The notes under the pieces: generated by a model
What the model was told of the DNA's origin: nothing
Database searches by the model: none
What the model saw: the letters and a program-made list of their open reading frames with translations, nothing else
IMG/VR virus record: IMGVR_UViG_3300047496_000334
Location: 1-64,000 of that record
Strand: one strand, 5' to 3'
Length of the DNA stretch: 64,000 bases
From: a virus
Shown here: positions 4,934-63,213 of the stretch, one piece after another
Layout of the letters: every line of letters starts with the position of its first letter
Numbering within the stretch: position 1 is the stretch's first letter
Translations under genes and position numbers: made by a program

Positions 4934-4934
4934 T

Positions 4935-44936: not shown

Positions 44937-44979
44937 GATTTTAGTGCCTTTTCCAGTGAAAGGACGTATAATTGGCTGC

Positions 44980-46026
44980 ATGGCAATTTCCTTCTATGAC
45001 AGGGTAAAAGAGACCTCTGCAACCACTGGACTTGCCTCCATAGCTCTTGGAGGCGCCGTAACTCAGTTTCGCTCCTTTGCAAGCGTCTATTCCAATGCTG
45101 TTCAATCTTATTACTGTGCCGCAGATCAATCCGGACCCAACTGGGAGGTGGGGATTGGGACATACCTAAGCTCAGGAAATGTCCTTGGGCGCACCTCTAT
45201 TCTGGCTTCCAGCAATTCAGGCAATATCGTTAACTTTACCTCTGGCTCTCTGTTCGTATTTAACACGATTCCAGCTATAAGCGCCCCCAATTCGATAGCG
45301 GGAAGTGGCAGGAATATAGTAGTAAGGCAAGCGAGCACAACAACTGCAACAGTAACGGCTGATGAATTTATAGTAGAAAATTCGCTTGGAAGCGGAGCTG
45401 TAAAACTAGCCAATATAAATCTTACTTTAAACGCAGGCACCAATGGAGCAAATGGGCTTGATACTGGCGCGTTGGCGGCAACTCAATTTTACTGGGTATA
45501 CATTATATACAATCCTTCTTCCAATACCCAGGCCGGATTGCTGCAAGTTGCATCTGGGTCGCCCCCTACGGTTTATAGCGGAGCACATATGCCATCCGGA
45601 TATCAAATGTCAGCATTAGTAGGAATTTTAGCAACAAATGGTTCATCGCAATTTATTGTCACAACGCAAATTGACAGAGAAGTATTTTATCAATCCGCTC
45701 AAGTTGTATTCAGCAATCAGGCTAATTCAACAGGGTTCACCGCTCAAACAATTACGCAAATACCCAATGGAGCTAAAAATGCCAGCGGGTATTATGATTG
45801 CGCACCAATACTCAGCACATTATTAGAATTAGGGGTCGCAGCAGATGCAACTGGCACAGGGGCGCAATATTCCAATCAGACCACTTCGGTGGTAACAGGA
45901 TTATCATTACTATTGCTTAATTTTAGGCAAGTGCCAGTTATTACCTCTCAATTGCTGTATATATTGGCAAGTGATTCTACCGCCTCCCCCACTAATTCAT
46001 TAGCAATACAAAGTTTTACTTTTTAA
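44980..46026 (+). CDS. Tail fibre-like protein on the opposite strand
   Basis: 348 residues from ATG 44980, 43 nt from the divergent portal start. N-terminal AISFYDRVKETSATTG and GAVTQFRSFASVYSNAVQSY are typical of phage tail-fibre anchors; WEVGIGTYLSSGNVLGRTSI continues it. The C-terminal ~200 residues are Ser/Asn-rich and beta. TATAATTG is at 44967-44974 just before the ATG, so transcript start may be very near or at the ATG. Confidence 0.65.
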   Translation: MAISFYDRVKETSATTGLASIALGGAVTQFRSFASVYSNAVQSYYCAADQSGPNWEVGIGTYLSSGNVLGRTSILASSNSGNIVNFTSGSLFVFNTIPAISAPNSIAGSGRNIVVRQASTTTATVTADEFIVENSLGSGAVKLANINLTLNAGTNGANGLDTGALAATQFYWVYIIYNPSSNTQAGLLQVASGSPPTVYSGAHMPSGYQMSALVGILATNGSSQFIVTTQIDREVFYQSAQVVFSNQANSTGFTAQTITQIPNGAKNASGYYDCAPILSTLLELGVAADATGTGAQYSNQTTSVVTGLSLLLLNFRQVPVITSQLLYILASDSTASPTNSLAIQSFTF

Positions 46027-46032
46027 TATAAA

Positions 46033-46488
46033 ATGCTTGGCTTCACCGCAATATCGGAAGATCCCATTGATGCTCTGAATGCGAACATTCAGCAATCTAT
46101 AGCTACATGGATGGCATCAGCTTCATTTTCTGCCGCAGGAAAGCTTACAGAAAAAACCATTGCAACATGGTCCGGACACTCTGCATTCTCTGCGCAAGGA
46201 AAGGCACTGGAAAAAGGCGTGGCAGCGTGGACAGCGTCCGGAACATTTAATCCCAAGGGGGCAATCGCAAGAAAGTCTCAAGCCACATGGCTTGCCCATA
46301 CAACTTTTTTAAGTAAAAGCCCCTCACTCAGGGCAAGCAAAGTAAACTGGAAGTCTGGCATCGTCTTTCAGGCTGTCGGATCTTCCAAAATGGGGAAAAT
46401 AGGCTATCCATTCCCCGCTCAACATCTTCTTGGCGATCCATTTCCTAAAAAAATACGTCCACTTTACCAAAGAATGCGAATTCAATAA
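46033..46488 (+). CDS. Protein with five ~20-residue repeats
   Basis: 151 residues. Five tandem units, each of the form (I/V)ATWxxxxxFxxxGKxxxK, occupy residues ~15-118: e.g. IATWMASASFSAAGKLTEKT and IATWSGHSAFSAQGKALEKG. Each has a Trp at position 4-5 and a Phe nine later. It follows the fibre gene by 6 nt and converges with the minus gene at 46482. Likely an accessory of the fibre. Confidence 0.55.
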   Translation: MLGFTAISEDPIDALNANIQQSIATWMASASFSAAGKLTEKTIATWSGHSAFSAQGKALEKGVAAWTASGTFNPKGAIARKSQATWLAHTTFLSKSPSLRASKVNWKSGIVFQAVGSSKMGKIGYPFPAQHLLGDPFPKKIRPLYQRMRIQ

Positions 46489-46721: not shown

Positions 46722-46890
46722 AGTCAATCTTAGCTATAATTTTACCATCAACTTTTACTTTGTGGTTTTTATCAATATCATCTGACCACACTTCTATCTC
46801 GGCAGGAAGGGGATATTTCTCCCTATATTGTATAGCCAAGGTCAGTCGCATAATCTTTCTATCCTTTTCTTCACATTTGCTACACGTCAT
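46711..46890 (-). CDS. 59-residue hypothetical protein with CxxC
   Basis: ATG 46890 overlaps the terminase end by 11 nt; stop TAA 46711-46713. Sequence starts MTCSKCEEKDRKIMRLTLAI and ends IIAKIDYGI; a CSKC knuckle and a beta-rich second half. Overlaps at both ends suggest it is part of the same translation-coupled chain. Unknown function. Confidence 0.6.
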   Translation of the reverse strand: MTCSKCEEKDRKIMRLTLAIQYREKYPLPAEIEVWSDDIDKNHKVKVDGKIIAKIDYGI

Positions 46891-48508
46891 AAATCGCCCC
46901 TTCCCTTGGTCTAAACTCTTTTATCTCTGTTTCTTCCTCATATTCATTTGTTCGCAATGCCCATCCGGTGTCACGCAGGAATTTAACTCCCTGGGTAAGC
47001 GCATCTGGCAGATCGTCATGCTTACCACGAGGGAAAATACTCATCTCATCAATACAAAGCTGCGCCCACCACCTGTCTGGTGCCGCTATTATACCATTTT
47101 CAAATAAATTTGAAACAGCATGTACACGTGCGATCTTGTCGCCCTTCGGAGTAATACCCTGAACACCAAATTTTTCATTGCTATAAAGGCGTATTAGCTC
47201 CTGAATAAGCGGTATGCCTGAAGCCGTCTTCTCCACAATAACCTTGTCAGCATGCATCTCGTGAGCCGTATAGGCGACAAGTTCGACAAGCCCCCATTCT
47301 TCACGGTCAAGATAATCCCTGCGCGATTCTCCCTTACGCCTTTCAGGAACTGCGCCATGAAAGCTCATTCGTTTTTGCCACGCATCCATAAGGATAATGC
47401 GCGGTTGCCCATCATCGCGGTACAGCCCCAGTACTACGCAGGCGGAATAGTCATTCGCACGCTTCTCAGTAAATGCCGGGTCAACTGATGCAATAATAAA
47501 ATCCATGACCGGATACTCAAGGGCGCGAAGCGGGTTGCCAGACTCATCAAATGCTTCACCCTGCTTAGGCCACATCTTCCACCACGATGATTTTATAATT
47601 CCGCCACCACGCGGAGCAGGAGATTGCATATATTGTCCGGCATATGCATAACTGGACATTTCCTTATCAGATTTTAGCTTATCTACTGCAATCTGATTAT
47701 AAACTTCTGGCCAAAGAAGTTCACCATCCTCTTCGCGCCAGTCTTCCCACCCTATTGATGTGATACATTTACGCCCTGAATCATATTCCATAGGGAGGCA
47801 AAGATGCTCATACCCCATATCGCGTGACAATATAAGCCCGGAAACATCATCCTCATTGGAGCGCTGCTGAATGTTTACAAAAACAGATTCATTAGGATCA
47901 ATAACGCGGCTGGGAAGAACCTCCATATACCAGCGGTTTGTTTCATCACGCGTAGTTTTTGATTCGACATCTTTAATATTGTTAGCGTCATCAATTATAA
48001 GGCGGTTTCCGCGTTCGCCTGTGCCTGTACCGCCTACAGACGATGCAATTTTCCATCCTGTCCGGCTATTTTCCAGTTTTACCTGGTTATCTTTGGTAAT
48101 TTCAAAAGAAGTACCCCAAAGCGTGCGATACAGATCTGATTTAACAAGTGTGCCAAAGCGCCCATTATCACGCTCTGTCAGGCTGGATGCATATGAAAAT
48201 GTAAGATAGCGTAAATGCGGTTTTTCTATCCACTCCCATGCAGGCCAGAAAACATTAACCACGATACTTTTGGCAAAGCCGGGGGGAATATTAATAAGCA
48301 ATTTTCGTATCTCGCCGCGAGATACCGCTTCGAGATGTTCGCACATTGCGCGGATGTGGCGCGCCTCCCGAAACTCACGCCCCGGCTCCAGATACTCCCA
48401 CATAAGTTTGATAAAATCATACAAGCTGCGCTCAGCACTTGCCTGATAAATAAGCCCCTTGGCAAGCATAGGATTCTGTTTAAACAGCGTTTCAATCGCT
48501 TTTGGCAT
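46880..48508 (-). CDS. terL: Terminase large subunit
   Basis: 542 residues. ATPase half: Walker A LLINIPPGFAKSIVVN (~70-85), Walker B LIIDDANNIKD. Nuclease half: IIASVDPAFTEKRANDYSAC with the first acidic residue, KVIVEKTASG, and HDDLPDALTQGVKFL with further Asp residues. This enzyme cuts and pumps phage DNA into heads. The start overlaps the end of the sugar operon gene 48492 by 17 nt, so packaging and sugar genes are transcribed together. Confidence 0.9.
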   Translation of the reverse strand: MPKAIETLFKQNPMLAKGLIYQASAERSLYDFIKLMWEYLEPGREFREARHIRAMCEHLEAVSRGEIRKLLINIPPGFAKSIVVNVFWPAWEWIEKPHLRYLTFSYASSLTERDNGRFGTLVKSDLYRTLWGTSFEITKDNQVKLENSRTGWKIASSVGGTGTGERGNRLIIDDANNIKDVESKTTRDETNRWYMEVLPSRVIDPNESVFVNIQQRSNEDDVSGLILSRDMGYEHLCLPMEYDSGRKCITSIGWEDWREEDGELLWPEVYNQIAVDKLKSDKEMSSYAYAGQYMQSPAPRGGGIIKSSWWKMWPKQGEAFDESGNPLRALEYPVMDFIIASVDPAFTEKRANDYSACVVLGLYRDDGQPRIILMDAWQKRMSFHGAVPERRKGESRRDYLDREEWGLVELVAYTAHEMHADKVIVEKTASGIPLIQELIRLYSNEKFGVQGITPKGDKIARVHAVSNLFENGIIAAPDRWWAQLCIDEMSIFPRGKHDDLPDALTQGVKFLRDTGWALRTNEYEEETEIKEFRPREGAIYDV

Positions 48509-49253
48509 CCATGAATTCCTTGGCAGATTTCTTTGCCGCTATATAGGTTTCATCGGGTTCGGATTTGTCACCCATAACAGATTCCCAGTTACGCCATTCC
48601 TTATCCCACAGATCCTCATTGAGTCTAAACCAGTGATTGATTGGCCCCATGTCTGGCTCAGGCAAGCCTAATATTCCGCGTATTTTTTCAGCATGTGCAA
48701 TACGCTCTGGACGCTTGGCAATAAAAAAATCCATCCAGAACCGCAAATCGCGCATACGCTTTGTCATTGGGTTTTTCTTTGCTATAAAACATGCAGCCTG
48801 AATGCCATAAATCGGCAAACCATGAACCAATGCAGATAATTCCTGCAGCCATGTATCGTCAAACCAGAATGGAAAATAATCTGTGTATAGCTGACCCGCG
48901 GCCGCCAGCCATTTGCGCGGGACGATAGGTATAACAGGGCCGATATTGGTGTTCCACCATACTACCCGCTCATCATCTTTGCTGTAAACATCTGCGATAT
49001 GTAAATCCCAGTGAGGGGTAATGCACACAGAGCGGTCAGTAACAAGCGCATAAATTTCTGACGGCTTAGCCTCATCTGCTATCGCATTCCAGATGGCGCC
49101 AAGGCTAGGGCGCAATTCATCGCTATGCAAAAACTCAATATCATTCTTACCGCTCGCCAACGCATCCAGAACGCTAAGGGCCGCCTGAAATCCAGTCGGG
49201 TTTCCGCGAGAAGCGCAAAGAACTGCTATCTTAAGTCGTCTTTTTTCTTCCAC
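48492..49253 (-). CDS. Glycosyltransferase-like protein
   Basis: 253 residues from GTG 49253. A Rossmann-like start (RLKIAVLCASRGNPTGFQAA), then YALVTDRSVCITPHWDLHIA, WWNTNIGPVIPIVPRKWLAA and FPFWFDDTWLQEL. The arrangement is that of GT-A glycosyltransferases but the DxD is only suggested (TDRS). Overlaps the 49231 gene by 23 nt and the terminase by 17 nt. Transfer of a phage-made sugar is likely. Confidence 0.55.
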   Translation of the reverse strand: MEEKRRLKIAVLCASRGNPTGFQAALSVLDALASGKNDIEFLHSDELRPSLGAIWNAIADEAKPSEIYALVTDRSVCITPHWDLHIADVYSKDDERVVWWNTNIGPVIPIVPRKWLAAAGQLYTDYFPFWFDDTWLQELSALVHGLPIYGIQAACFIAKKNPMTKRMRDLRFWMDFFIAKRPERIAHAEKIRGILGLPEPDMGPINHWFRLNEDLWDKEWRNWESVMGDKSEPDETYIAAKKSAKEFMDAKSD

Positions 49254-50268
49254 TGCTCATTTCCCTGTCATTAAAGGCAATATAACGTTTTCCAGCAGAT
49301 TCCCTATTGGCTGCATACCACTCAATTGTCTCCTTAATGCCTTTTTCCAAATCATAAATCGGCTGATATCCATAATTTTGTGCACGGCTTATATCCATAA
49401 GGCGTCTTGCATCACCCTTTGGCTTATTTTTATCCCAAATAATCTCAACAGGACCGCCAGGCGCATTGCGCGCTACAATCTCCGCCACCTCTTTTATTGT
49501 CACCGGCTTTCCAGACGCAATATTAAGTGGTTTGGTTATACCCTGCTCAACAGCCATCATCATACCGCGCGCCACATCTTTCGCATGCACAAAATCACGT
49601 ATTGCAGAGCCATCGCCCCATACAGTCAAAGGATTTTCCCCATTCACCACGCGCGCTATGAGTGATGGCAGCACCATGGCAGTGCTGGAATCAAACCAGT
49701 CATATGGTCCGTATACATTAGCCGGTCGCACAATGGAGCATTTCCAATCATATTCTACCGCATAAGCATCTGCCTGCAATTCAGCCATGCGCTTTGCCCA
49801 TCCCGCGAACCAGTCATTTGGCGATGGATTTCCTTTCCACATATCATCTTCATGAAAAACTTCTGCCGGAGGATAGACCCCAACAGTGCTGGTATGCAGA
49901 TAATGCTTTACCCCGGCGCGCCGGGCCGCCTCCATCATATTGATAGAAGTCTGTATAGTTGGAACAAAAAAGGAGGCGGGATATTTTAATGTAGCAGATG
50001 GCGATCCCTTGACCCCCACAAGATTAAAAACGATATCCATGCTTTTACACATATCCTCGCAGTTATTAAAGTAACGCAAATCACGGACAAAACTATCCCC
50101 CTCACTGCCGCTTTTGTATCTAATCTTCATATCGGAATGAGAGCCATATTTATCCATCGAAATTATTCTCACTGAAGCCCCCTTATCAGCAAGCATTTCC
50201 ACTAGCGGAGTTCCTATTAATCCGCTCCCCCCCGCAACCAAAACTTTTTTACCCCTATAGAAACTCAT
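49231..50268 (-). CDS. SDR epimerase/reductase lacking the usual Tyr
   Basis: 345 residues. NAD(P) motif VAGGSGLIGTPLVEM at the start, then TSTVGVYPP and SIVRPANVYGPYDWF with VWGDGSAIRDFVH. It resembles GDP-fucose synthase-type SDRs. The expected YxxxK is AGWAK in NDWFAGWAKRMAE: Ala replaces Tyr while Lys is retained. That removes the standard general acid, so a changed reaction or inactive enzyme is possible. Overlaps the kinase gene by ATGA. Confidence 0.65.
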   Translation of the reverse strand: MSFYRGKKVLVAGGSGLIGTPLVEMLADKGASVRIISMDKYGSHSDMKIRYKSGSEGDSFVRDLRYFNNCEDMCKSMDIVFNLVGVKGSPSATLKYPASFFVPTIQTSINMMEAARRAGVKHYLHTSTVGVYPPAEVFHEDDMWKGNPSPNDWFAGWAKRMAELQADAYAVEYDWKCSIVRPANVYGPYDWFDSSTAMVLPSLIARVVNGENPLTVWGDGSAIRDFVHAKDVARGMMMAVEQGITKPLNIASGKPVTIKEVAEIVARNAPGGPVEIIWDKNKPKGDARRLMDISRAQNYGYQPIYDLEKGIKETIEWYAANRESAGKRYIAFNDREMSSGRKKTT

Positions 50269-51311
50269 ATACCCTCCTGAAGATGGTGAAAATCGCGCCT
50301 GTCGAACTTGCCATAAAGATAATGTGCCGGATCTGAAAAAATTATGCCGGACCCTGCATTTTCAAACTTAAACGGAACCCAGAGAAGTTCTTTCAGCTCT
50401 TCAAGAATTCTGCCGTGATCTTCCAGTCGGGCAAAAATAAGAATAAATCCGCCGCCGCCCGCTCCTAATAATTTGCCGCCCTGCGCACCAGCTTTCAATG
50501 CGCGCTCATAAATGTCATCTACAAATGCAGGCGATATATTTTTAGCAAGTGTGCGTTTAATTTTCCACGATTCATGCAACAATTTTCCAAAATCATCAAG
50601 ACTGCCGTTATGCAATAGCCTCAAAGCGTCATCCACCAGCGACTGCATCTCTTTAAGTTCAGCCTTTTTCTCTCCGCGCTCCTGAGATTTTATTTGTTCA
50701 GACGCAATATCAGAAGCTGTGCGGGAAACGCCTGTAAAAAAAAGAAGGCAGCGACGCTGTAGCTTATCAAGACGCGATGCGGGTAGCATTACCGGTTGCA
50801 CGGAAAAATCACCATCTGGCGAAATGGTAGTCTTATTAAAGCCGCCATAAGAGGCTGCAATCTGATCCTGAATGCCGACATTCTCTTTTAAAACCTCTCG
50901 CTCAATATAGATAGCCTCTTTAGCCAAATCATATTTATTCGTCATCCTGTCCTTCAACCCATGCAGAGCATTAAGCAGTCCCACTGTGAAGGTGGAACTT
51001 GAGCCAAGGCCTGACCGGGCAGGCAGATCGCCTGTATGATGAATTTCTACGCCATGATCGATATTAAGATGTTTAAGCACTTCACGAACTGAGGCGTGCT
51101 GAATATCGCCGTGGCTAAGAACAGATTCAATTTGCGACCATACAATGCGGGATTTTTCAGGGAAAAAAGGAGGAAGATAGCGTACCGTTATATAGCAGTA
51201 ATGATTTATAGTCGTTGAAAGAACGCAGCCGCCATTTTCCTGATACCATGGGGCATAATCTGTGCCTCCTCCAAAAAAGGAAATACGGAATGGAGTCCTA
51301 GAAATTATCAC
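50265..51311 (-). CDS. GHMP kinase, heptose-kinase-like
   Basis: 348 residues from GTG 51311, since VIISRTPFRISFFGGGTDY is the usual start of D-glycero-D-manno-heptose 7-phosphate kinase (HddA-like) proteins; an earlier start would overlap the preceding gene by 100 nt. GHMP motif 2 is LPARSGLGSSSTFTVGLL and motif 3 LGAGGGGFILIFA. It phosphorylates a sugar or sugar phosphate at C1. Overlaps the SDR upstream by 14 nt. Confidence 0.75.
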   Translation of the reverse strand: MIISRTPFRISFFGGGTDYAPWYQENGGCVLSTTINHYCYITVRYLPPFFPEKSRIVWSQIESVLSHGDIQHASVREVLKHLNIDHGVEIHHTGDLPARSGLGSSSTFTVGLLNALHGLKDRMTNKYDLAKEAIYIEREVLKENVGIQDQIAASYGGFNKTTISPDGDFSVQPVMLPASRLDKLQRRCLLFFTGVSRTASDIASEQIKSQERGEKKAELKEMQSLVDDALRLLHNGSLDDFGKLLHESWKIKRTLAKNISPAFVDDIYERALKAGAQGGKLLGAGGGGFILIFARLEDHGRILEELKELLWVPFKFENAGSGIIFSDPAHYLYGKFDRRDFHHLQEGI

Positions 51312-52230
51312 TATACCATCCCAAAGTTTTCTTGATACCATCAACCAATGATGTTTTTGGAGTCCACCCCAGATCAGATTCCGCCCGCTTGCAATCAAGC
51401 GATGTGCTGACCTGAATAGAGGGCTTGCTGGTATCGTAATTTATAGCAAGAGACTTGCCAGAGGCCACCACTATCTCCGTTACAATTTCCCTGATAGTAA
51501 AAGACGTTCCATATCCGCAATTATACAGGCCAAATTTCGATTCCTGTTTATCAAGCGCACATTCTACAAAATCTACAAGGTCGTCAATATAACAAATGTC
51601 ACGCGCTTCCGATCCATTGCCCCAGACATCAATATGATCCCCCGCCAGCTTCACCTTAGTTACAGTGGCTCCAAAAACATGGGCGCGGTCAAGCGCATAT
51701 TTATCCCATGGGCCATAAAAATTGCTTCCGCGAATGGCCGTGAATTTTGTTTCGCCCTGATCCGCAAAAAAAGCTGCCATTTTTTCAAGATATAGTTTGG
51801 TACTTACCATGCCGAAATAGCGTGAATTCGGATTAACAGGCGTTTCCTCGCTACAATGGCCGCCGCCATACATCGTCGAGCAACTGAACCAGATAACATG
51901 CTTCACCTTACGCAGCATCGCCGCACGGAAAATGTAAGAATTCATCACCGCGTTGTCCGTAACATGCAGCCACGGGCGCTCAAAGGTGTCCTTGCACCCG
52001 GAAGTAACTGCCGCCGCCTGCACAACAATGTCCATGCCGTTAATCAGCGAATCCACCATAGCGTCATTGCAGGAATCAACATTGTACCATTCAATATGAG
52101 GATGGTCCCATGGCTGCCGCGTAAAAAAAGTAGCATAGACCTGATATTCAGGATTATCCGCAAAACGCTGTGCAATATTGCGACCTACAAAACCCGTTCC
52201 GCCAAATATTAAAACCTTTTTCTTTTTCAT
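51298..52230 (-). CDS. SDR sugar-nucleotide enzyme lacking the usual Tyr
   Basis: 310 residues. Nucleotide motif IFGGTGFVGRNIAQRF, IWFSCSTMYGGG with the Ser, and AIRGSNFYGPWDKY. The site of YxxxK reads GMVSTK, with Met in place of the Tyr. The end ESDLGWTPKTSLVDGIKKTL is typical for epimerase/dehydratase SDRs. It forms a pair with the 49231 enzyme in the same operon. Confidence 0.65.
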   Translation of the reverse strand: MKKKKVLIFGGTGFVGRNIAQRFADNPEYQVYATFFTRQPWDHPHIEWYNVDSCNDAMVDSLINGMDIVVQAAAVTSGCKDTFERPWLHVTDNAVMNSYIFRAAMLRKVKHVIWFSCSTMYGGGHCSEETPVNPNSRYFGMVSTKLYLEKMAAFFADQGETKFTAIRGSNFYGPWDKYALDRAHVFGATVTKVKLAGDHIDVWGNGSEARDICYIDDLVDFVECALDKQESKFGLYNCGYGTSFTIREIVTEIVVASGKSLAINYDTSKPSIQVSTSLDCKRAESDLGWTPKTSLVDGIKKTLGWYSDNF

Positions 52231-52740
52231 TTAATAAACTTCCACTAAAATTGTTGATTCTTCGCAATCAAGTGCCGCCCTGTACTCCGGTAAAATCTGA
52301 TCCGCTTTTTCGAGTTTTACCACTTTCACGGCAGATAGCATGGCACGCACAGCATCCGTATAATCACCAAGATGTTGAATGCCTGGATCAAGCGGGACAG
52401 GTGTCGCAATCGCGGTGCGGATGATGACCTTCGGCCTGTAATCGCTGAAAAGAGGTATTTTGTCCAGATGCTGCACAAGTTGCGACATGGCTTCCAGCAT
52501 AAAATTAATACGGGGAAAGATTGTGCACACTTTTCCGCCTGCCATCGCAATGCCTGTTGCCATGCCCATCTGCATATTTTCTGCGACAGGGATCTCCATG
52601 CGCTGATTAATGGGAATGTCCGCAAGAGTTTTGCTCATAAATGTGCCATCGCAGGCCACGGCCTGCCCCATAAAAATATATCCATCATCGGCAAGAAGCT
52701 TCATTGCATCACATAATGCTTTCTCATATTCTGGTGTCAA
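52231..52740 (-). CDS. ThDP enzyme, E1 beta/transketolase C-half-like
   Basis: 169 residues: FMGQAVACDGTFMSKTLADI, MEIPVAENMQMGMATGIAMAG, CTIFPRINFMLEAMSQLVQH and VPLDPGIQHLGDYTDAV. These belong to the Pyr (thiamine-pyrimidine) domain, including the conserved Glu in PVAENM. It lacks the third domain, so it is shorter than E1 beta. It pairs with the PP-domain protein at 52737, coupled by ATGA. Confidence 0.75.
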   Translation of the reverse strand: MTPEYEKALCDAMKLLADDGYIFMGQAVACDGTFMSKTLADIPINQRMEIPVAENMQMGMATGIAMAGGKVCTIFPRINFMLEAMSQLVQHLDKIPLFSDYRPKVIIRTAIATPVPLDPGIQHLGDYTDAVRAMLSAVKVVKLEKADQILPEYRAALDCEESTILVEVY

Positions 52741-53324
52741 AATTGAATTCGCCTCCCCGCGCCGCTATGGGGAAATGGCAAATCATATTTAAAATAATAT
52801 TTCTCACCCAGAGAATGGCAGAATGGCCGACCCCACACATCTGCTGTTTTAGTGCAAACACTTTTACCATTGTCTTCAATTACAATTTGCATGGGAAGCT
52901 TATTCCAATAAGCATAATTAGCACATTCATGCGCAAGTCCAGACATTCCCGCCATATCGCCAAGAAATAACCAAACCTTCTCACTTCCGCCACTTCGCTT
53001 AATCTGCCATGCCACCCCAAGCGCAATCGGACAACACCCTGCAAATATGGCGGAAGAAAAAAACCGGTGGTCCGGCCAGCATAACGTCATTGAGCGGCCA
53101 GCCATAATAGCAATTTTGACCTTTTGAGCGGGTACGCCAGCCAGAAGCGCATGGTAATGAGAGCGCCAAGTAGAGAATACCCAATCACCTGGTTTAAAAT
53201 CTTTAAAGATATTTATTAGTACATCCTCATTGTTTCCAGAAAGGTGAATGGGGGCTTTAATTTTTCCCGCGTTAAATTCTTCTGCTATGTCTTTTTCAAA
53301 GGCAATCAGGTCTTTTTTATTCAT
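52737..53324 (-). CDS. ThDP enzyme, E1 alpha-like subunit
   Basis: 195 residues with the PP-domain of ThDP enzymes: WVFSTWRSHYHALLAGVPAQ, SSAIFAGCCPIALGVAWQI, and the ThDP/metal motif FLGDMAGMSGLAHECANYAY then VIEDNGKSV (GD...N). The canonical GDG is GDM here. It is an E1 alpha-like half of a split ThDP enzyme that could transfer a two-carbon unit onto a sugar, as AviB1/AviB2 do in avilamycin synthesis; the substrate is unknown. Confidence 0.75.
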   Translation of the reverse strand: MNKKDLIAFEKDIAEEFNAGKIKAPIHLSGNNEDVLINIFKDFKPGDWVFSTWRSHYHALLAGVPAQKVKIAIMAGRSMTLCWPDHRFFSSAIFAGCCPIALGVAWQIKRSGGSEKVWLFLGDMAGMSGLAHECANYAYWNKLPMQIVIEDNGKSVCTKTADVWGRPFCHSLGEKYYFKYDLPFPHSGAGRRIQF

Positions 53325-53742
53325 ATGCCAACTTCCTTGCTACAGCCCATGCCATCTCTGTGCTGGATGCCCTTTTGCCGCCGCCGACATTGAACAATTC
53401 CGTTATCCCTAAATCTTTGCACAATCCGGATTCAGAATTATTTTTAGTCTTGTCTGAGCGATCGCCGCCATTGGCAAAATAATCTGGCTTTATGGCACGT
53501 ATCGCCTCGCACACCGAATCATCTTTATCGTCAACCGGCCATACTTCAGAAACAGAGCGCATCTCGCGCAGAATATCCGCGCGCTGCTTCCAGCCCATAA
53601 AGAAAAAATTCTTCTTGCGTATAAGCCAGTCATCAGAATTAAGTATAACGTAGACACGTCCATATTGCGCTGCTTCCCTGATATAATCCAGATGACCGGA
53701 ATGAACAGGATCGAACCCGCCGCTCACACATACTATTGCCAT
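53317..53742 (-). CDS. HxGH nucleotidyltransferase, sugar activation
   Basis: 141 residues. GGFDPVHSGHLDYIREAAQY with HSGH, YVILNSDDWLIRKKNFFFMG, and a late ANGGDRSDKTKN plus GKRASSTEMAWAVAR (the ISSTxxR-like motif). This is the cytidylyltransferase/adenylyltransferase family that includes HldE-C and TagD. With the GHMP kinase it can convert a sugar phosphate to an NDP-sugar. Overlaps both neighbours. Confidence 0.8.
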   Translation of the reverse strand: MAIVCVSGGFDPVHSGHLDYIREAAQYGRVYVILNSDDWLIRKKNFFFMGWKQRADILREMRSVSEVWPVDDKDDSVCEAIRAIKPDYFANGGDRSDKTKNNSESGLCKDLGITELFNVGGGKRASSTEMAWAVARKLAYE

Positions 53743-54926
53743 GATGTCTCCGCCATGAAATCATCAAAACATTGTTCCACATACTCAACGGCAGTCTTGC
53801 CCATATCCTGATGGCATCCAATGGCGAACCCATTACGCATTATCCTGTCGCAATTTTCAAGGCTGCCGTGAACCTCATGCCGGAACATTTTAAGCGCAGG
53901 CTGCCTTGCCATATTACCGGCAATAACAGGACGGGTTTCTACACCTTTTTTTTGCAAGAATGAGGTGATGGATTTTACAGTAAATTTGCAATTATCTTTA
54001 AGCACAATTCCGAATCCGAACCAGCTACTATGGCCTAACTCAGTTTCTTCCTGAAATTGAAAAAATGCACTGTATTTATCCAGCGCATGGCGAAGCATCA
54101 TCTGTGCATCGCGGCGCCTGTGCACAAAGCGGTCAAGTTTTGGCAATTGCTTCATACCAATAACCGCCTGCACCTCGGTAGGGCGAAGATTATAGCCGAT
54201 ATTGACAAACAGAAAGCGCGGGTCGATATTACTGTGCTCCTGTTCATAAGCCTTGGGATTGTTTGATTCCCTTGACCAGCCATGCGCGCGCAAAATCCGC
54301 ATCAGATCGGCCATTTCATAACTATTGGTCAGGCAAATGCCACCCTCAAAAGTGGTGATGTGATGGGAAAAGTAAAAGCTCATAGTGTTGACAAGGCCAA
54401 AGCCTCCAACAAACTTATTATGATATTTAGCACCCATCGCTTCACAGCAGTCCTCAATGATAATAAGCCCGCGCCTGAGCGCAATCATGCGTATAGTATC
54501 CATGTCGCAGGGATTGCCGTACACATGCACCAGCATTATCGCTTTGGTTTTTGAAGTAATAGAATCTTCCAGCTTCTGAACATCGATATTGTAAGTTGCC
54601 AGATCGCAATCCACAAACACCGGAACCAGACCGCACTGGATAATAGGCCAGACCGTCGTGGCCCATGACAGGGCCGGAACAATTACATCATCGCCAGCCT
54701 TCAGATTCCTGTTCCATGCCGGGTTAGTAATTGCTGCCAAGGCAAGTAAATTGGCAGAAGACCCCGAATTGCACATCACTGCGTATTTAACGCCAAAATA
54801 CCTGGCGCATTGTTCCTCGAACTCGCGCACCTTTGGACCCATGGTCACGTGGGTCGTGCGCATCTGTTCGCAGGCAGCCTGAATTTCCTCTTCGCCAAAC
54901 GTAGGTTCGTGGAGCCTTACCTTCAT
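53733..54926 (-). CDS. DegT-fold sugar enzyme, ColD-type 3-dehydratase candidate
   Basis: 397 residues of the DegT/DnrJ/EryC1 family: MCNSGSSANLLALAAI (PLP phosphate site), VFVDCDLATYNID, IIIEDCCEAMGAKYHNK with the PLP-binding Asp, and NIGYNLRPTEVQAVIG. The Schiff-base Lys position reads SFYFSHHITTFEGG, with His where aminotransferases have Lys. That swap is the mark of ColD, GDP-4-keto-6-deoxymannose 3-dehydratase. Together with the GMD next door it points to a 3,6-dideoxy-4-keto sugar. Confidence 0.8.
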   Translation of the reverse strand: MKVRLHEPTFGEEEIQAACEQMRTTHVTMGPKVREFEEQCARYFGVKYAVMCNSGSSANLLALAAITNPAWNRNLKAGDDVIVPALSWATTVWPIIQCGLVPVFVDCDLATYNIDVQKLEDSITSKTKAIMLVHVYGNPCDMDTIRMIALRRGLIIIEDCCEAMGAKYHNKFVGGFGLVNTMSFYFSHHITTFEGGICLTNSYEMADLMRILRAHGWSRESNNPKAYEQEHSNIDPRFLFVNIGYNLRPTEVQAVIGMKQLPKLDRFVHRRRDAQMMLRHALDKYSAFFQFQEETELGHSSWFGFGIVLKDNCKFTVKSITSFLQKKGVETRPVIAGNMARQPALKMFRHEVHGSLENCDRIMRNGFAIGCHQDMGKTAVEYVEQCFDDFMAETSWQ

Positions 54927-55942
54927 CGCGTTAAAAACCTTTCACCACTCATGGCTCTTTTCCTCCAGTATTCCAATAAATCTTGCATTGTTTGAGTAAA
55001 ATGTATTTCAGGCTTCCATCCTGTGTGATGAACAAATTTTTCAACGCATGGCACCTGATTGTCTGCATCAATGGGGCGTAGCCTATCTTTATCGACTTCA
55101 AATCTTAATGGAAGTCTTGCAAATCGCTTAGCAGATAATGATGTAAGATACTGTAGCATTTCTTCGATAGAGCAAGTGTAGTTTCCACCAATATTATACA
55201 CTTCTCCGGCTTTTGGATTGACAGTAAGAAGCATATGATAAGCACGAACAGCATCACGCACGTCTGCATAAGTGCGTGTAGAATAAAGATTGCCCCCTTT
55301 TATGACCGGATCAATTTGTCCAGATTCAATCATGGCAATCTGCTTGGCAAAGGAAGATTCGGCAAAGACATCGCCGCGACGGGGGCCGGTATGGGTAAAC
55401 ATACGCGTGACCATCACCGTCATGCCATACGCCTCAGCGTAATGACGGCCAATGAGGTCTGTTCCTACTTTAGAAATGGCGTAAGGACTGGCAGGATGAA
55501 AGTTGCAATCTTCCATTATCGGAGTCTTTTCCTTCGGAACTCTACCATACACTTCCGATGAACTGCACACATGGATAATCGCATCTTTTTTATACTGTCT
55601 CAGCGCTTCGAGAACGCGGTGCGTGCCGTTAATGTTAGTATCATACGTATCAAGTGCAGACGTGAAACTCGTTTTGGGATAACTCTGCGCAGCCAGATGG
55701 AATACATAATCAGGCTGAGAAGCCTTGACCACTTCGTTAATGGAATCCGAGTCGCGTAATTCACCGTAGACGAGTTTAATTCGTCCACCACTATTAATTT
55801 CGGGCAAAAGGTGCGAGATGTTGTCAAGGGGACTTCTCCATCTGCAGAGTCCATAAATATCCCAATCGGTGTGCTCTAAGAGGTAATCGGCTAAGTGGCT
55901 GCCGACAAAGCCAGTGATGCCCGTAATTAAGCAGCGCGTCAT
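54923..55942 (-). CDS. gmd: GDP-mannose 4,6-dehydratase
   Basis: 339 residues. TGITGFVGSHLADYLL binds NADP; HVCSSSEVYGRV supplies catalytic Ser/Glu; SPYAISKVGTDLIGRHY has the intact YxxxK; MFTHTGPRRGDVFAESSFAK is a GMD signature. Converts GDP-mannose (probably host-made) to GDP-4-keto-6-deoxymannose. It is coupled by ATGA to both neighbours and gives the substrate expected for the ColD-like enzyme. Confidence 0.85.
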   Translation of the reverse strand: MTRCLITGITGFVGSHLADYLLEHTDWDIYGLCRWRSPLDNISHLLPEINSGGRIKLVYGELRDSDSINEVVKASQPDYVFHLAAQSYPKTSFTSALDTYDTNINGTHRVLEALRQYKKDAIIHVCSSSEVYGRVPKEKTPIMEDCNFHPASPYAISKVGTDLIGRHYAEAYGMTVMVTRMFTHTGPRRGDVFAESSFAKQIAMIESGQIDPVIKGGNLYSTRTYADVRDAVRAYHMLLTVNPKAGEVYNIGGNYTCSIEEMLQYLTSLSAKRFARLPLRFEVDKDRLRPIDADNQVPCVEKFVHHTGWKPEIHFTQTMQDLLEYWRKRAMSGERFLTR

Positions 55943-56097
55943 TTCCGCACCTCAGTAACCTGCGCCAAAAAGTCTTTCTGCTCCTGCGGCGTCAGAAGTT
56001 TACCCGTCCATATATTCCAGAGCAGCGTTGCAAAGACCAGCATGAGAACAAAAGTGGCGGAATTAAAGATGATAATCGCCGTCCTGATATGATTCAT
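55939..56097 (-). CDS. 52-residue single-TM protein in the sugar operon
   Basis: ATG 56097, TGA 55939-55941 overlapping the GMD start (ATGA). NHIRTAIIIFNSATFVLMLV and FATLLWNIWTG form one membrane segment, then a short polar tail (KLLTPQEQKDFLAQVTEV). Could anchor a sugar enzyme at the membrane; no family known. Confidence 0.6.
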   Translation of the reverse strand: MNHIRTAIIIFNSATFVLMLVFATLLWNIWTGKLLTPQEQKDFLAQVTEVRK

Positions 56098-56117
56098 ATA
56101 TTCACCACTTTGCCCGA

Positions 56118-57017
56118 TTATTGTATATACAACTTCCGCTTCAGAAAATCAACCGTCATTTTACCGTTGTTCCGCGCTTCCTGAACTTCATCCATTAATT
56201 TGTCAAAAACAGGTTTTTCGGCGGTATAGTGATAAAATCCACCTTCGCCAATCCACACATCAACGCCGTTATGGTGGTATACCCATGCGCGCGGGCACAG
56301 GCGCATCTTTCCACCCATGGCTTCTGCCATGTAGTAAAGGAATGATTCGGTAAAGCAGTTTCTGAATAAATCCATGTAGCCGCCATATTCCAGAAAGAAG
56401 TCATAACGGAAGATAATGGCGTAAGCGTTCAGGCAGGGGGCGCGCGCCGCAGCCATACCAACACAATCCATGTAATCAGCGGGATCTATTAAGTCCCTGT
56501 TGTCCGGCCCTGCCGCCACCTGTATGGGGATAGCCATGTCGCCGCGATTGACCGTTGGAAAGAGAATCTGCAGTTTGGGGTCTTTTTCAAATTCCTTAAC
56601 GGCCTCTGCCACCCAGTCCATCGGCCAGATGATATCGGATGACGTATAAACAATATACCGGGTGTCTCCCGCGGCGTAACGGCGGAGAATATCATTCATC
56701 AGTTCCCATTGAGACATTTTATCAGGATAAAAACAAAGTTCATAACCGCCCGCATTTTTATGGTGCCGCGCTAACGTGGAGCGCACAATGTCAGAAGATT
56801 TTGCATCGCCAACGACCAGCTGAATGTCAGGGCGCGAACCAATGATCGAATCAATCGCGTCCATATAAACATAAGGCCTGGTCCTGCTTCCCTCTCCCAG
56901 TGTGTTGATGCGATCAGATATCTGCTGAAGCGTAAGTCTGTCAGGCGGCCTTCCGTTTGAGGGCTCTTCTGCAGCATCAGGAGCATAGGTTGGCATGAAT
57001 GCTAATATTTTACTCAC
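56118..57017 (-). CDS. Glycosyltransferase
   Basis: 299 residues from GTG 57017, which overlaps the previous TGA (GTGA); the longer reading frame to 57137 would add 40 unlikely residues. VSKILAFMPTYAPDAAEEPS, then YIVYTSSDIIWPMDWVAEAV (SSD in the DxD place), PTVNRGDMAIPIQVAAGPDN, and YIFRYDFFLEYGGY-type segment. A GT2-like transferase; acceptor unknown. Confidence 0.6.
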   Translation of the reverse strand: MSKILAFMPTYAPDAAEEPSNGRPPDRLTLQQISDRINTLGEGSRTRPYVYMDAIDSIIGSRPDIQLVVGDAKSSDIVRSTLARHHKNAGGYELCFYPDKMSQWELMNDILRRYAAGDTRYIVYTSSDIIWPMDWVAEAVKEFEKDPKLQILFPTVNRGDMAIPIQVAAGPDNRDLIDPADYMDCVGMAAARAPCLNAYAIIFRYDFFLEYGGYMDLFRNCFTESFLYYMAEAMGGKMRLCPRAWVYHHNGVDVWIGEGGFYHYTAEKPVFDKLMDEVQEARNNGKMTVDFLKRKLYIQ

Positions 57018-57766
57018 CTGTTCCCCCTTATGGCCAGAGCCAGCGCTCCGGAATTCATCCATGCCATGTTCTGCATATGATCGCTGAACAGCGCAGATTC
57101 CATACGGCGAATCTGCCATTTCCTTGTCCCGTTCCACCGCTCGTCATCTCCCTGTTCATCGGGGCCGCGTTTTATATCCAGCGGGCAAAAGGTGCGGTAC
57201 TCCGCTTTATTTATTTTAAATCCGCGCTCCAGGTTATAACACAACAGCCCCGTCCATCCGTCCGTATTAAAACTATAGCCGAATCCGGCGACAGATATCC
57301 ATTCGCGGTTCCATGCCGGATAGGTATCCACATGCCCTATACATGAACCATTCGACAGGGTTGCCGTATCGATGTCAGACACGGTATTGATAATATGCGG
57401 CCATCCCTTGTGTCTGACCGCTATGTTCAGAAGTTTTTCATCCCACCCTTTCGTGCCGATAATGGCGTCATCCGACATCACCATAAATAATCCGGACTCC
57501 TGCGATGCCTCACGCATTAAATCCATGTATGCCTTATGCAGGTCAGCATATCCTCCCGCGCGCGGCGTAACTATCGTTTTTACTGAAACAGGGTAATCAA
57601 TTCCGCCCCTGGCGAGCGGGTGATCCTTATCATCATCGTCCGTCTTAACCAGTATTTCAATACTGCGTGGACAGGATGAATTCTCAAGCAGCGAATCCAT
57701 AAATTCCATAAACTTCATGTTAAGATTCCCCCTGAGTCTGCTGGCCATGAGAACAGATAATTTCAT
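57014..57766 (-). CDS. GT2-like glycosyltransferase
   Basis: 250 residues. MKLSVLMASRLRGNLNMKF at the start, a KTDDDDKDHPLAR acidic region, then ESGLFMVMSDDAIIGTKGWD carrying a SDD motif (DxD-like) and GHVDTYPAWNREWISVAGFG. Family 2-type fold expected. Coupled by ATGA to both neighbours. Confidence 0.6.
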   Translation of the reverse strand: MKLSVLMASRLRGNLNMKFMEFMDSLLENSSCPRSIEILVKTDDDDKDHPLARGGIDYPVSVKTIVTPRAGGYADLHKAYMDLMREASQESGLFMVMSDDAIIGTKGWDEKLLNIAVRHKGWPHIINTVSDIDTATLSNGSCIGHVDTYPAWNREWISVAGFGYSFNTDGWTGLLCYNLERGFKINKAEYRTFCPLDIKRGPDEQGDDERWNGTRKWQIRRMESALFSDHMQNMAWMNSGALALAIRGNR

Positions 57767-58479
57767 TCCGCATGCCTCTGCCTTGGCAGCGCATCCGGCA
57801 ACTGGGCGTAAGGCTCACGGTTCCACAGCCGGAAATTATACCCCAGATCGCCCCAATGCTGCGTGTTGTTGGAAATCCCGTGGTCCACAAAGATGCGAAC
57901 GCCTGCCGCGCGTATCTTATCGGTAAAGTAACGGTCCTCACCCTGATAGGCACGGTGAACGTCGTTCCATACGATTTCAAAATGCGGCGATGGCAATCCG
58001 CGCAGCTTATCCAGCTTTACCAGCATCAGTCCCATCCCCACCTTCGCCACTTCCTCCAGACCAATCTTCCCCGCCGAATGCGTCATATGACCGTCCAGGC
58101 CTTCCGCCGTATATTGCAGCGTATCCTGCTTGCGGCAGTAATTGGCCGCGATAGCATCGATTTCAGGATGCTCCTTCATCGCCTGCAACATGCGAAGCAC
58201 GCAATCCGACGGCATCTCGATATCATCATCCCACCAGAGTTGGTGCGTACATTCATCCGCCAGAGCCTCATCCAGACATTCCTGCCGCGCCTGGGGCAGA
58301 AGGCTTGCCTGCAGCCTGCAGATAAGGCCAAAGGGGACTCCAAAGGCAGTGAGATGGTGCACCATCATCGACAGGCCCAGTGAGCAGCGCGGGGTTATGG
58401 GGCGGTTGGAACAAACCGAAATTGCCAGCTTTAACCCTTTAGCGCCCTCATACTGCTTTATTGCTATCGGCTCTTTCAT
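57763..58479 (-). CDS. Glycosyltransferase with DDD motif
   Basis: 238 residues from ATG 58479, behind AAGGA. KLAISVCSNRPITPRCSLGL, then HQLWWDDDIEMPSDCVLRML, in which WWDDD is the DxD metal site; FEIVWNDVHRAYQGEDRYFT and DKIRAAGVRIFVDHGI with the ED residues typical of a GT-A catalytic base. First large gene of the sugar operon. Confidence 0.7.
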   Translation of the reverse strand: MKEPIAIKQYEGAKGLKLAISVCSNRPITPRCSLGLSMMVHHLTAFGVPFGLICRLQASLLPQARQECLDEALADECTHQLWWDDDIEMPSDCVLRMLQAMKEHPEIDAIAANYCRKQDTLQYTAEGLDGHMTHSAGKIGLEEVAKVGMGLMLVKLDKLRGLPSPHFEIVWNDVHRAYQGEDRYFTDKIRAAGVRIFVDHGISNNTQHWGDLGYNFRLWNREPYAQLPDALPRQRHAE

Positions 58480-60272: not shown

Positions 60273-60446
60273 ATGATAGCCACATGCGACCATTGCCATA
60301 CGCCGGTCAACACGGACAATGAGCCGCGCGCCTTACAGCGCAGCACGGTCTATGTGATATGTGATTTGTGTCACAGCCTGAGCGAGGCTCAGTTACTAGC
60401 GTTGCCGGATATCCAGCGCTGCGAGCGCGTTACTCGTTGTCAATAA
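60273..60446 (+). CDS. Two-CxxC zinc-ribbon-like protein, tentative
   Basis: 57 residues from ATG 60273: MIATCDHCHTPVNTDNEPRA, then VYVICDLCHSLSEAQLLALP. CDHC and CDLC pairs 27 residues apart fit a zinc ribbon. No clear ribosome-binding site. It overlaps the end of the small terminase candidate by 17 nt in the convergent direction. Confidence 0.5.
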   Translation: MIATCDHCHTPVNTDNEPRALQRSTVYVICDLCHSLSEAQLLALPDIQRCERVTRCQ

Positions 60447-60966
60447 CCCCATTGTCAATAACCAATGGCTCTTGTTTGTTTTCCAATATCTGTTTGATTG
60501 CCAGCAGATCATTCTTACTCATGTCACGCAGCTCCTTCATGGCATTCTGCAGCACCACGTTTACCGTGGTTTCCTGTTTGCTTTCCTGCTTGTCAGACTG
60601 GCCCAAGAACTGCTTTCCAAGCCAGATGAGCATGCCGGGATGACCACTGAGCGCCAGTCTGGCTTGCTTTGAACGCAGCGAGTGTTTGAAGTCGGCAATA
60701 CCATTGAGTATAGCCTCATTAATATCAAAGTAATCGGCAATGGCGACATTAAACCAATCCACGTCAACACCCAGCAAATGCGCTATTTCTTCACGGGTGC
60801 AACCCACCTGGCTCCATGCACGTATTTTTTTGAGGTCCAAAGCATTCGCGCGTTGGGAAGTGGTGTCACGCTTTCGCTTCGCCCGGAACCTTGGATTAAG
60901 CTTCGGAACATACGGATTGCCCTTTGGTTTTATGTCTGGGATGTCTTCCATCATTCTAATCAGCAT
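60430..60966 (-). CDS. Terminase small subunit candidate
   Basis: 178 residues if starting at ATG 60966; TTG 60993 and ATGs 60951/60954 are alternatives and no strong ribosome-binding site decides. An HTH block KKIRAWSQVGCTREEIAHLL is followed by GIADFKHSLRSKQARLALSG and MLIWLGKQFLGQSDKQES, the layout of small terminase-like proteins. It binds the packaging site and feeds the large terminase, 12 kb away across the sugar operon. Confidence 0.65.
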   Translation of the reverse strand: MLIRMMEDIPDIKPKGNPYVPKLNPRFRAKRKRDTTSQRANALDLKKIRAWSQVGCTREEIAHLLGVDVDWFNVAIADYFDINEAILNGIADFKHSLRSKQARLALSGHPGMLIWLGKQFLGQSDKQESKQETTVNVVLQNAMKELRDMSKNDLLAIKQILENKQEPLVIDNGVIDNE

Positions 60967-60993
60967 ATTAACATCAAATAACACCTCATGCAA

Positions 60994-63137: not shown

Positions 63138-63212
63138 GAAAATTTATACGCAAGCCACGTGAAGGAAGAAACCATGCCTATCCGCTTAACGCCCAACAAC
63201 GCTAGGGATTGA
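63114..63212 (+). CDS. 32-residue fusion-like ORF
   Basis: ATG 63114 to TGA 63210-63212. The peptide begins MGNNRIGM, identical to a segment of the frameshifted gene at 2022, and ends MPIRLTPNNARD, nearly identical to the end of the gene at 4717. A 13-bp inverted repeat (63126-63138 / 63172-63184, GGATAGGCATGG/CCATGCCTATCC) lies inside. It may be a fusion product of deletion between the two left-end genes' ancestors. Confidence 0.5.
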   Translation: MGNNRIGMENLYASHVKEETMPIRLTPNNARD

Positions 63213-63213
63213 T
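63171..63213. repeat. 43-nt dispersed repeat, right copy
   Basis: ACCATGCCTATCCGCTTAAC plus the next 23 bases match 4892-4934 at all but four positions. The right copy lies 33 nt from the end of the 32-nt repeat, whereas the left copies are 2.8 kb apart. Confidence 0.8.

What the first reader, a model, noticed from the sequence alone, without database searches (positions are those of the whole stretch)
48492..58479. Sugar-biosynthesis and glycosyltransferase operon wired into the packaging genes
Twelve overlapping minus-strand genes, several joined by ATGA or GTGA, run from a DDD-motif glycosyltransferase (58479) to a gene whose last codons overlap the start of the large terminase (48508). 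They encode a GMD, a ColD-like enzyme, a nucleotidyltransferase, a split ThDP enzyme, two SDRs, a GHMP kinase, four glycosyltransferase-like proteins and a TM protein. A self-contained pathway of this size in a phage, between the two terminase genes, suggests virion glycosylation or late remodelling of the host surface.
Basis: partly seen in the sequence, partly recalled or inferred. Interest (0 to 1): 0.88.

Follow-up and report, generated by a model that had tools for sequence, protein, structure and literature searches.

The report
Phage pathway for a branched heptose
A tailed phage carries, between its DNA-packaging genes, a run of 13 genes that appears to make and attach an unusual seven-carbon sugar with an extra carbon branch, and the core of the same gene set recurs in unrelated phages, so it is probably a sugar that phages put on themselves or on their host.

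Summary
The 'GMD' is closer to GDP-heptose 4,6-dehydratase (PDB 7US5) than to GDP-mannose dehydratase, and the kinase is HddA-like. The ColD-like enzyme has His in place of the PLP lysine, so it is a 3-dehydratase. The 'split ThDP enzyme' is a minimal two-subunit E1-like pair with its catalytic residues kept. Together they read as a heptose version of the yersiniose pathway: NDP-heptose to 4-keto-6-deoxy, to 3,6-dideoxy-4-keto, to a C-acetyl branch, then reduction. Two other phage contigs (L062, L063) add GmhA and HddC, which supports heptose. Two podovirus-like contigs (L090, L107) carry the same core beside head and tail genes. In 61 dereplicated viral loci with the ThDP pair, 33 of 34 neighbouring DegT proteins are His-type. 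Legionellales-type bacteria hold the same enzymes in O-antigen-type loci. Glycosyltransferases sit between the terminase genes in two sister phages without the sugar genes. Virion glycosylation is the likelier use, host-surface remodelling the main rival; neither is shown. I found no report of this pathway in phages.

The parts
57763..58479 (-). GT-A-type glycosyltransferase (WWDDDIEMP motif)
   Evidence: PF00535 E 1e-3 (below cutoff); phrog_34859 glycosyltransferase, phrog_1574; 63-66% identical copies between TerS and TerL in L007 and L010
57014..57766 (-). probable GT-A-type glycosyltransferase (KTDDDD and MSDD motifs)
   Evidence: no profile hit; aligns with an L107 protein that matches phrog_14945 glycosyltransferase; 21-27% to proteins in bacterial O-antigen loci
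56118..57017 (-). glycosyltransferase-like protein (GTG start at 57017)
   Evidence: PF00535 E 2e-3, below cutoff; 60-68% copies in L007 and L010
55939..56097 (-). 52-aa protein with one predicted membrane helix
   Evidence: read directly from sequence; ATGA overlap with next gene
54923..55942 (-). NDP-heptose 4,6-dehydratase (GMD/DdahA family)
   Evidence: best PDB match 7US5, GDP-D-glycero-D-manno-heptose 4,6-dehydratase, 321 bits versus 127 for E. coli GMD 1DB3; 70-74% identical in Legionellales-type genomes next to gmhA and hddC
53733..54926 (-). ColD/RfbH-type PLP 3-dehydratase (DegT fold, His for Lys)
   Evidence: ColD 2GMS 298 bits, RfbH-type 3BCX 274 bits; motif SFYFSHHITTFEGG
53317..53742 (-). 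HldE domain II-like nucleotidyltransferase (HSGH and SST motifs)
   Evidence: PF01467 E 3e-11; TIGR02199 44 bits, below cutoff; phrog_7878
52737..53324 (-). minimal ThDP subunit alpha (PP domain only, 195 aa)
   Evidence: PF00676 E 1e-9; TIGR03182 E 3e-20; GD motif kept in 82 of 84 relatives
52231..52740 (-). minimal ThDP subunit beta (Pyr domain only, 169 aa)
   Evidence: PRK09212 E1-beta E 2e-6; catalytic Glu54 kept in 84 of 84 relatives
51298..52230 (-). SDR1, extended SDR with no Tyr at the usual YxxxK place
   Evidence: PF01370 E 2e-38; RYFGxxxTK conserved in phage and bacterial homologues
50265..51311 (-). HddA-type GHMP kinase (heptose 7-phosphate kinase family)
   Evidence: NF049969 HddA E 1e-42, below cutoff; PDB 3K85 E 1e-39
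49231..50268 (-). SDR2, extended SDR, FAGWAK in place of YxxxK
   Evidence: PF01370 E 2e-46; 60-76% identical in L008 and in bacterial O-antigen loci
48492..49253 (-). GT-A-fold glycosyltransferase, with about 26 residues of the N-terminal acidic loop missing relative to homologues
   Evidence: homologue from L007 modelled at pLDDT 88.7; PDB matches K4CP, SpsA, WrtF; deletion seen in alignments
46880..48508 (-). terminase large subunit (flank)
   Evidence: PF17289; tblastn to 1447 phage records
60430..60993 (-). probable terminase small subunit (flank)
   Evidence: phrog_309 E 1.8e-4; same position in L007 and L010

Best explanation
A phage pathway that makes a nucleotide-activated, C-branched 3,6-dideoxy-heptose, with four glycosyltransferases that attach it. 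Inferred steps: (1) host D-glycero-D-manno-heptose 7-phosphate is phosphorylated at C1 by the HddA-like kinase, loses its 7-phosphate by a host phosphatase, and is activated by the phage nucleotidyltransferase. (2) The 4,6-dehydratase gives the 4-keto-6-deoxy-heptose. (3) The ColD-like enzyme removes the C3 hydroxyl. (4) The minimal E1-like ThDP pair transfers an acetyl unit from pyruvate onto the C4 ketone, as YerE does for yersiniose and two-subunit alpha-keto-acid-dehydrogenase-like enzymes do in antibiotic sugars. (5) SDR1 and SDR2 reduce or epimerise the product. (6) The soluble GT-A enzymes transfer it, most likely to virion proteins as the particle is built, since the genes sit in the late morphogenesis block. 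Shown here: gene content, family assignments, key residues, recurrence, selection. Inferred: substrates, step order, the acetyl branch, the acceptor.
For: Heptose: the 4,6-dehydratase is nearest to the heptose enzyme 7US5 and the kinase nearest to HddA. Phage contigs L062 and L063 add GmhA and an HddC-like guanylyltransferase to the same core. Bacterial genomes with the ColD/SDR1/SDR2 homologues carry the dehydratase at 70-74%, beside gmhA and hddC in the four loci read. The GDP-3,6-dideoxy-heptose pathway is biochemically proven in C. jejuni (PMC10440746). Branching: DegT proteins within 2 kb of the ThDP pair are His-type in 44 of 45 cases, 33 of 34 after dereplication; Tb Glu is kept in 84 of 84. 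Two-subunit E1-like enzymes specialise in C2 branches on keto-sugars (PMC12247030), and yersiniose is built on a 3,6-dideoxy-4-keto sugar. Acceptor: glycosyltransferases are retained between the terminase genes in L007 and L010 without sugar genes; the module lies beside capsid, portal or tail genes in L062/L063 and L090/L107; no O-antigen flippase or polymerase was recognised in the cluster; no thymidylate-synthase-type DNA hydroxymethylase in the record.
Against: No GmhA in this record, and no HddC or GmhB recognised, so the pathway is not closed. The nucleotidyltransferase is HldE-like (beta-ADP type in bacteria) while HddA feeds the alpha-GDP route. The nearest sister with sugar genes, L008, lacks the kinase and nucleotidyltransferase between the shared genes (its contig ends upstream). 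The window's last glycosyltransferase has lost an acidic loop and may be impaired. Profile scores for HddA, RfbH and HldE-II are below the curated equivalog cutoffs. Both SDRs have atypical active sites. Nothing here shows the acceptor.
Confidence: 0.5

Rival explanations
1. Same sugar pathway, but the product goes onto host lipopolysaccharide late in infection, blocking superinfection or changing the receptor so that released virions are not trapped.
For: The closest bacterial homologues are in O-antigen-type clusters with wzm/wzt transporters. Authors of the pelagimyophage survey favour O-chain modification for phage glycosyltransferases (PMC7029224).
Against: No GtrA/GtrB-type membrane proteins, flippase or polymerase were recognised in the cluster; the glycosyltransferases look soluble and their genes are translationally coupled to the terminase. 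Relatives keep the glycosyltransferases without the sugar genes.
Confidence: 0.3
2. The pathway makes an unbranched 3,6-dideoxy-heptose as in C. jejuni HS:5, and the ThDP pair does something else, such as supplying a precursor or working on another ketose.
For: All other steps match the proven C. jejuni route (PMC10440746); the ThDP pair also occurs in viral loci where no DegT was found within 2 kb (27 of 61 dereplicated loci).
Against: Near-exclusive pairing with His-type 3-dehydratases where a DegT is adjacent; E1-like two-subunit enzymes have a precedent in sugar branching; the C. jejuni route needs no ThDP enzyme.
Confidence: 0.2
3. The glycosyltransferases and sugar modify phage DNA as protection against restriction.
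For: Phage DNA glycosylation is an established use of phage glycosyltransferases (own knowledge; mentioned in PMC7029224).
Against: No thymidylate synthase family gene (the base hydroxymethylase fold) in the record and no C5 methylase; genes lie in the late block, not with replication genes.
Confidence: 0.05
4. A bacterial O-antigen fragment carried by chance and decaying.
For: Bacterial homologues at 50-74% identity; one glycosyltransferase has an in-frame deletion.
Against: Purifying selection on every gene tested; same core in several phage lineages, and most of the module at the same site in L008; order differs from the bacterial loci.
Confidence: 0.03

Closest known systems
GDP-3,6-dideoxy-heptose pathway of Campylobacter jejuni capsule (HS:5, HS:11; PMC10440746)
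   Same: HddA kinase, GDP-heptose 4,6-dehydratase and PLP C3-dehydratase, then reductase/epimerase; GmhA and HddC present in phage relatives L062 and L063
   Different: The phage adds a ThDP pair, has HldE-like instead of HddC nucleotidyltransferase in the window, uses two extended SDRs, and lies in a virion gene block
Yersiniose A pathway (DdhB, DdhC, YerE) of Yersinia O-antigen
   Same: 4,6-dehydratase, His-type 3-dehydratase, then ThDP two-carbon branching at C4 and reduction
   Different: YerE is a single-chain flavoprotein of the decarboxylase superfamily on CDP-hexose; here a minimal two-subunit E1-like pair and a predicted heptose
Two-subunit alpha-keto-acid-dehydrogenase-2 enzymes of antibiotic sugars (AviB1/AviB2, KbDH-alpha/beta, aldgamycin; PMC12247030, PMC4753412)
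   Same: Two-subunit E1-like ThDP enzyme predicted to add a two-carbon branch to a keto-sugar
   Different: Phage subunits are 195 and 169 aa, a single core domain each; cyanophages S-SM2 and P-TIM68 have a fused form; known members are in actinobacterial antibiotic clusters
Heptose and LPS genes in cyanophages and pelagimyophages (PMC7378029, PMC7029224)
   Same: Phage-borne heptose kinase, isomerase and glycosyltransferases; S-SM2 and P-TIM68 carry a fused ThDP protein near phosphoheptose isomerase
   Different: Those reports describe LPS-related auxiliary genes; in the passages I read they do not describe a 3-dehydratase plus ThDP branching module
Legionellales-type O-antigen loci (L011-L023, L178-L181)
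   Same: wzm-wzt-HddA-ColD-SDR1-SDR2, plus a 4,6-dehydratase 70-74% identical to the window's in ten of eleven genomes; in the four read, it is followed by GmhA and HddC
   Different: Two loci instead of one; ThDP homologues are full length (over 320 aa) where present

Membership tests
GDP-3,6-dideoxy-heptose pathway (C. jejuni HS:5 type) | GDP-heptose 4,6-dehydratase | tested here: met
   321 bits to 7US5 versus 127 to GMD 1DB3; substrate itself not tested
GDP-3,6-dideoxy-heptose pathway (C. jejuni HS:5 type) | PLP C3-dehydratase with His for Lys | tested here: met
   SHHITT motif; ColD 298 bits
GDP-3,6-dideoxy-heptose pathway (C. jejuni HS:5 type) | HddA, HddC and GmhA present | tested here: not met
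   HddA-like kinase present, HldE-like nucleotidyltransferase instead of HddC, no SIS_2 domain in the record; all three are met in L062 and L063
GDP-3,6-dideoxy-heptose pathway (C. jejuni HS:5 type) | C4-reductase and C5-epimerase | tested here: inconclusive
   two extended SDRs, both without Tyr at the usual place; no cupin epimerase seen in the cluster
Two-subunit E1-like sugar-branching enzymes (alphaKADH2) | E1-alpha and E1-beta-like subunits encoded side by side | tested here: met
   profile hits to PDH E1 alpha and beta; both present in all 80 loci
Two-subunit E1-like sugar-branching enzymes (alphaKADH2) | ThDP/Mg motif and catalytic Glu intact | tested here: met
   GD in 82 of 84, Glu in 84 of 84
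Two-subunit E1-like sugar-branching enzymes (alphaKADH2) | full-length subunits including the C-terminal domain of beta | tested here: not met
   195 and 169 aa
Two-subunit E1-like sugar-branching enzymes (alphaKADH2) | pyruvate-dependent transfer of a C2 unit to a keto-sugar | not testable with these tools
   needs enzyme assay
YerE-like branching enzymes | single-chain decarboxylase-superfamily flavoprotein | tested here: not met
   two subunits with E1-type profiles
GT-A glycosyltransferases | GT-A fold | tested here: met
   for the 48492 family: model pLDDT 88.7 of the L007 homologue, PDB hits SpsA, K4CP; the other three by sequence only
GT-A glycosyltransferases | acidic metal/nucleotide motif | tested here: inconclusive
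   DDD or DDDD motifs seen in 57763 and 57014; not examined in 56118; the 48492 copy lacks the CDxDD loop that homologues have

The most novel reading that the evidence does not exclude
Phages of several lineages make their own nine-carbon, C-branched 3,6-dideoxy-heptose with a minimal two-subunit ThDP enzyme found mainly in viruses so far, and put it on their virions during assembly.
Probability: 0.3. Interest if true: 0.82.

Novelty: new variant of a known kind. Interest (0 to 1): 0.62.

Why it matters
If true, a phage-encoded route to a branched deoxy-heptose would link three known pieces (capsular dideoxy-heptose, yersiniose-type branching, phage glycosyltransferases) in one module that recurs next to capsid, portal and terminase genes. 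It gives a concrete, testable product for a class of phage genes that is usually filed only as 'LPS-related auxiliary genes', and a very small ThDP ligase pair of possible use in making tertiary alcohols.

Tried and rejected
Reading the 55942 gene as GDP-mannose dehydratase: rejected as the best name because the heptose enzyme scores far higher and gmhA/hddC travel with its homologues. ThDP pair as housekeeping PDH: rejected; subunits are far too short and co-occur with sugar genes. In host-like genomes the single hits were full-length E1-alpha; I first took these as housekeeping PDH, but in G004, G006 and G007 they lie beside the heptose locus, so their role is open. DNA glycosylation: no thymidylate synthase or C5 methylase family in the record. 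Direct nucleotide search of phage records: no match. Single-protein scans found only close relatives; the alignment scan was needed. First structure model of the window glycosyltransferase was too poor to use (pLDDT 43). The annotated TerS of MW202675 has no detectable similarity to the window's TerS candidate. Terminase family PF03237 gave no hit in the record. Literature searches for this module in phages gave nothing direct, but the library lacks most subscription journals.
Full report
The record is an IMG/VR virus contig of 66,105 bases. It encodes portal, terminase, primase, helicase, major head protein and tail proteins. No near DNA relative of the 20 kb around the finding exists among 50,697 phage records. 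Three other viral contigs are relatives of the same group by terminase (79-88% identical): L007, L008 and L010. A fourth contig is the same virus in another assembly, 99.98% identical over 16.5 kb.

Check of the observation. Thirteen genes run on the minus strand from 58479 to 48492. Most start inside or right at the stop of the gene before. The last one ends at 48492, inside the terminase large-subunit gene that starts at 48508. The kinase most likely starts at GTG 51311 and the third glycosyltransferase at GTG 57017, judged from homologues. The terminase small subunit at 60430-60993 is weakly identified but keeps its place in relatives.

What the enzymes are. The 4,6-dehydratase matches the GDP-heptose enzyme 7US5 at 321 bits and true GDP-mannose dehydratase 1DB3 at 127 bits. 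The kinase is nearest to heptose 7-phosphate kinase HddA. The DegT-fold protein matches ColD and RfbH and has His where aminotransferases have the PLP lysine, so it is a sugar 3-dehydratase. The nucleotidyltransferase resembles HldE domain II. The ThDP pair matches pyruvate dehydrogenase E1 alpha and beta but each subunit is cut down to one core domain of 195 and 169 residues. SDR1 and SDR2 are extended SDRs whose usual YxxxK tyrosine is not at its place, in phage and bacterial copies alike. Several of these hits lie below curated family cutoffs, so they name a family, not a proven reaction.

Glycosyltransferases. All four have only weak or indirect profile support. For the 48492 family I modelled the L007 homologue with 16 sequences: pLDDT 88.7, and it matches GT-A enzymes such as K4CP, SpsA and WrtF. 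The window's own copy lacks about 26 residues that hold an acidic loop in homologues and may be altered in function. In L007 and L010 three of the glycosyltransferases lie between TerS and TerL with no recognised sugar-synthesis genes. L008 has DegT, ThDP pair, SDR1, SDR2 and the last glycosyltransferase just before TerL, at 62-73% identity. So the glycosyltransferases are the constant part of this locus and the sugar module the variable part.

Distribution. All 80 loci tallied also have the beta subunit, and 52 have a DegT gene nearby (that tally is the 79 new viral loci plus the bacterial L060). Of DegT genes within 2 kb, 44 of 45 are His-type; after merging loci whose alpha subunits are over 90% identical, 33 of 34 in 61 loci. 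Lys-type queries were included, but the set was collected with viral copies related to this phage, so an unbiased base rate is still needed. The catalytic glutamate is present in 84 of 84 beta subunits and the GD of the ThDP motif in 82 of 84 alpha subunits. In sampled genomes the minimal alpha was found in 1 of 369 of the class and 1 of 399 of the phylum. Both bacterial cases carry phosphoheptose isomerase and HddA-like kinase close by.

Why heptose. Phage contigs L062 and L063, which carry a head-tail connector and a major head protein (and in L063 a terminase), hold GmhA, an HddC-like guanylyltransferase, the 4,6-dehydratase, the His-type DegT, the HddA-like kinase, an Fcl-like SDR and the ThDP pair. 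L090 and L107 hold ThDP pair, DegT, 4,6-dehydratase, nucleotidyltransferase and kinase in a row beside tail genes, and in L107 also a major head protein. Twelve bacterial loci of Legionellales-type gammaproteobacteria have HddA and ColD-like genes, most with SDR1 and SDR2, and in the three loci read in full they follow transporter genes that look like wzm and wzt (by eye). Ten of eleven such genomes searched also have a 4,6-dehydratase 70-74% identical to the window's, and in the four I read it is followed by gmhA-like and hddC-like genes. The C. jejuni HS:5 pathway with the same order of chemistry is proven in vitro (PMC10440746).

Why a branch. In yersiniose synthesis a ThDP enzyme adds an acetyl unit from pyruvate to C4 of a 3,6-dideoxy-4-keto sugar, and two-subunit E1-like enzymes do the same kind of reaction in antibiotic sugars and seem confined to two-carbon branches (PMC12247030; PMC4753412). 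The near-exclusive pairing of the phage ThDP genes with His-type 3-dehydratases fits this. It is inference; no assay was possible.

Destination. For the virion: the genes are built into packaging and head-tail blocks in at least three unrelated gene orders, the glycosyltransferases look soluble, and no O-antigen membrane machinery was recognised in the cluster. For the host surface: the nearest bacterial homologues are in O-antigen-type loci, and authors of the pelagimyophage survey favour O-chain modification (PMC7029224). DNA as acceptor is unlikely, as no thymidylate synthase-type gene is in the record. I put virion first, host surface second.

Limits. The window lacks GmhA, and no HddC or 7-phosphatase was recognised, so the host must provide the heptose phosphate. 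The HldE-like nucleotidyltransferase and the HddA-like kinase would belong to different anomer routes in bacteria, so the activating nucleotide is open. All neighbour counts are on fragments of up to about 20 kb. Selection tests use saturated synonymous sites, which still show strong constraint.

Novelty. Phage-borne heptose and LPS genes are known (PMC7378029, PMC7029224), glycosylated virions are known (own knowledge), and each enzyme type is known. I found no description of the combination, in an open-access library only. I therefore call it a new variant of a known kind.

Noticed in passing
L107:5498-6892, L090:1932-3449 and about 34 of 79 viral ThDP loci: A B12-binding radical SAM protein travels with the ThDP pair in many phages and in the bacterial genome G631; it may add a further C-methylation or epimerisation. 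It was not seen in the window's cluster.
   Followed up: partly
window 48492-49253: In-frame loss of about 26 residues with the acidic CDxDD loop, largely conserved in the 15 homologues aligned; the same in the second assembly of this virus.
   Followed up: partly
window 51298-52230 and 49231-50268: Both SDRs lack Tyr at K-4 of the YxxxK motif (RYFGMVSTK; WFAGWAK), conserved in phage and bacterial homologues, so an unusual active site.
   Followed up: partly
G004, G006, G007 (L181, L179, L178): Full-length E1 alpha/beta genes next to 4,6-dehydratase, gmhA, hddC and an Fcl-like SDR in Legionellales-type MAGs; possibly the bacterial counterpart of the phage ThDP pair.
   Followed up: partly
window 63165-63213, 4886-4934, 2044-2075: Short near-identical stretches repeated between the right end and the early region; might be regulatory repeats.
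   Followed up: no
window 44935-46488: Two plus-strand genes (one tail-fibre-like, phrog_11518) lie against the surrounding minus-strand genes between portal and terminase; content differs in L007, L008 and L010.
   Followed up: no
L071, L072, L104: Two different ThDP pairs in one phage contig (41% and 52-53% identical to the window's), suggesting two branched sugars.
   Followed up: no
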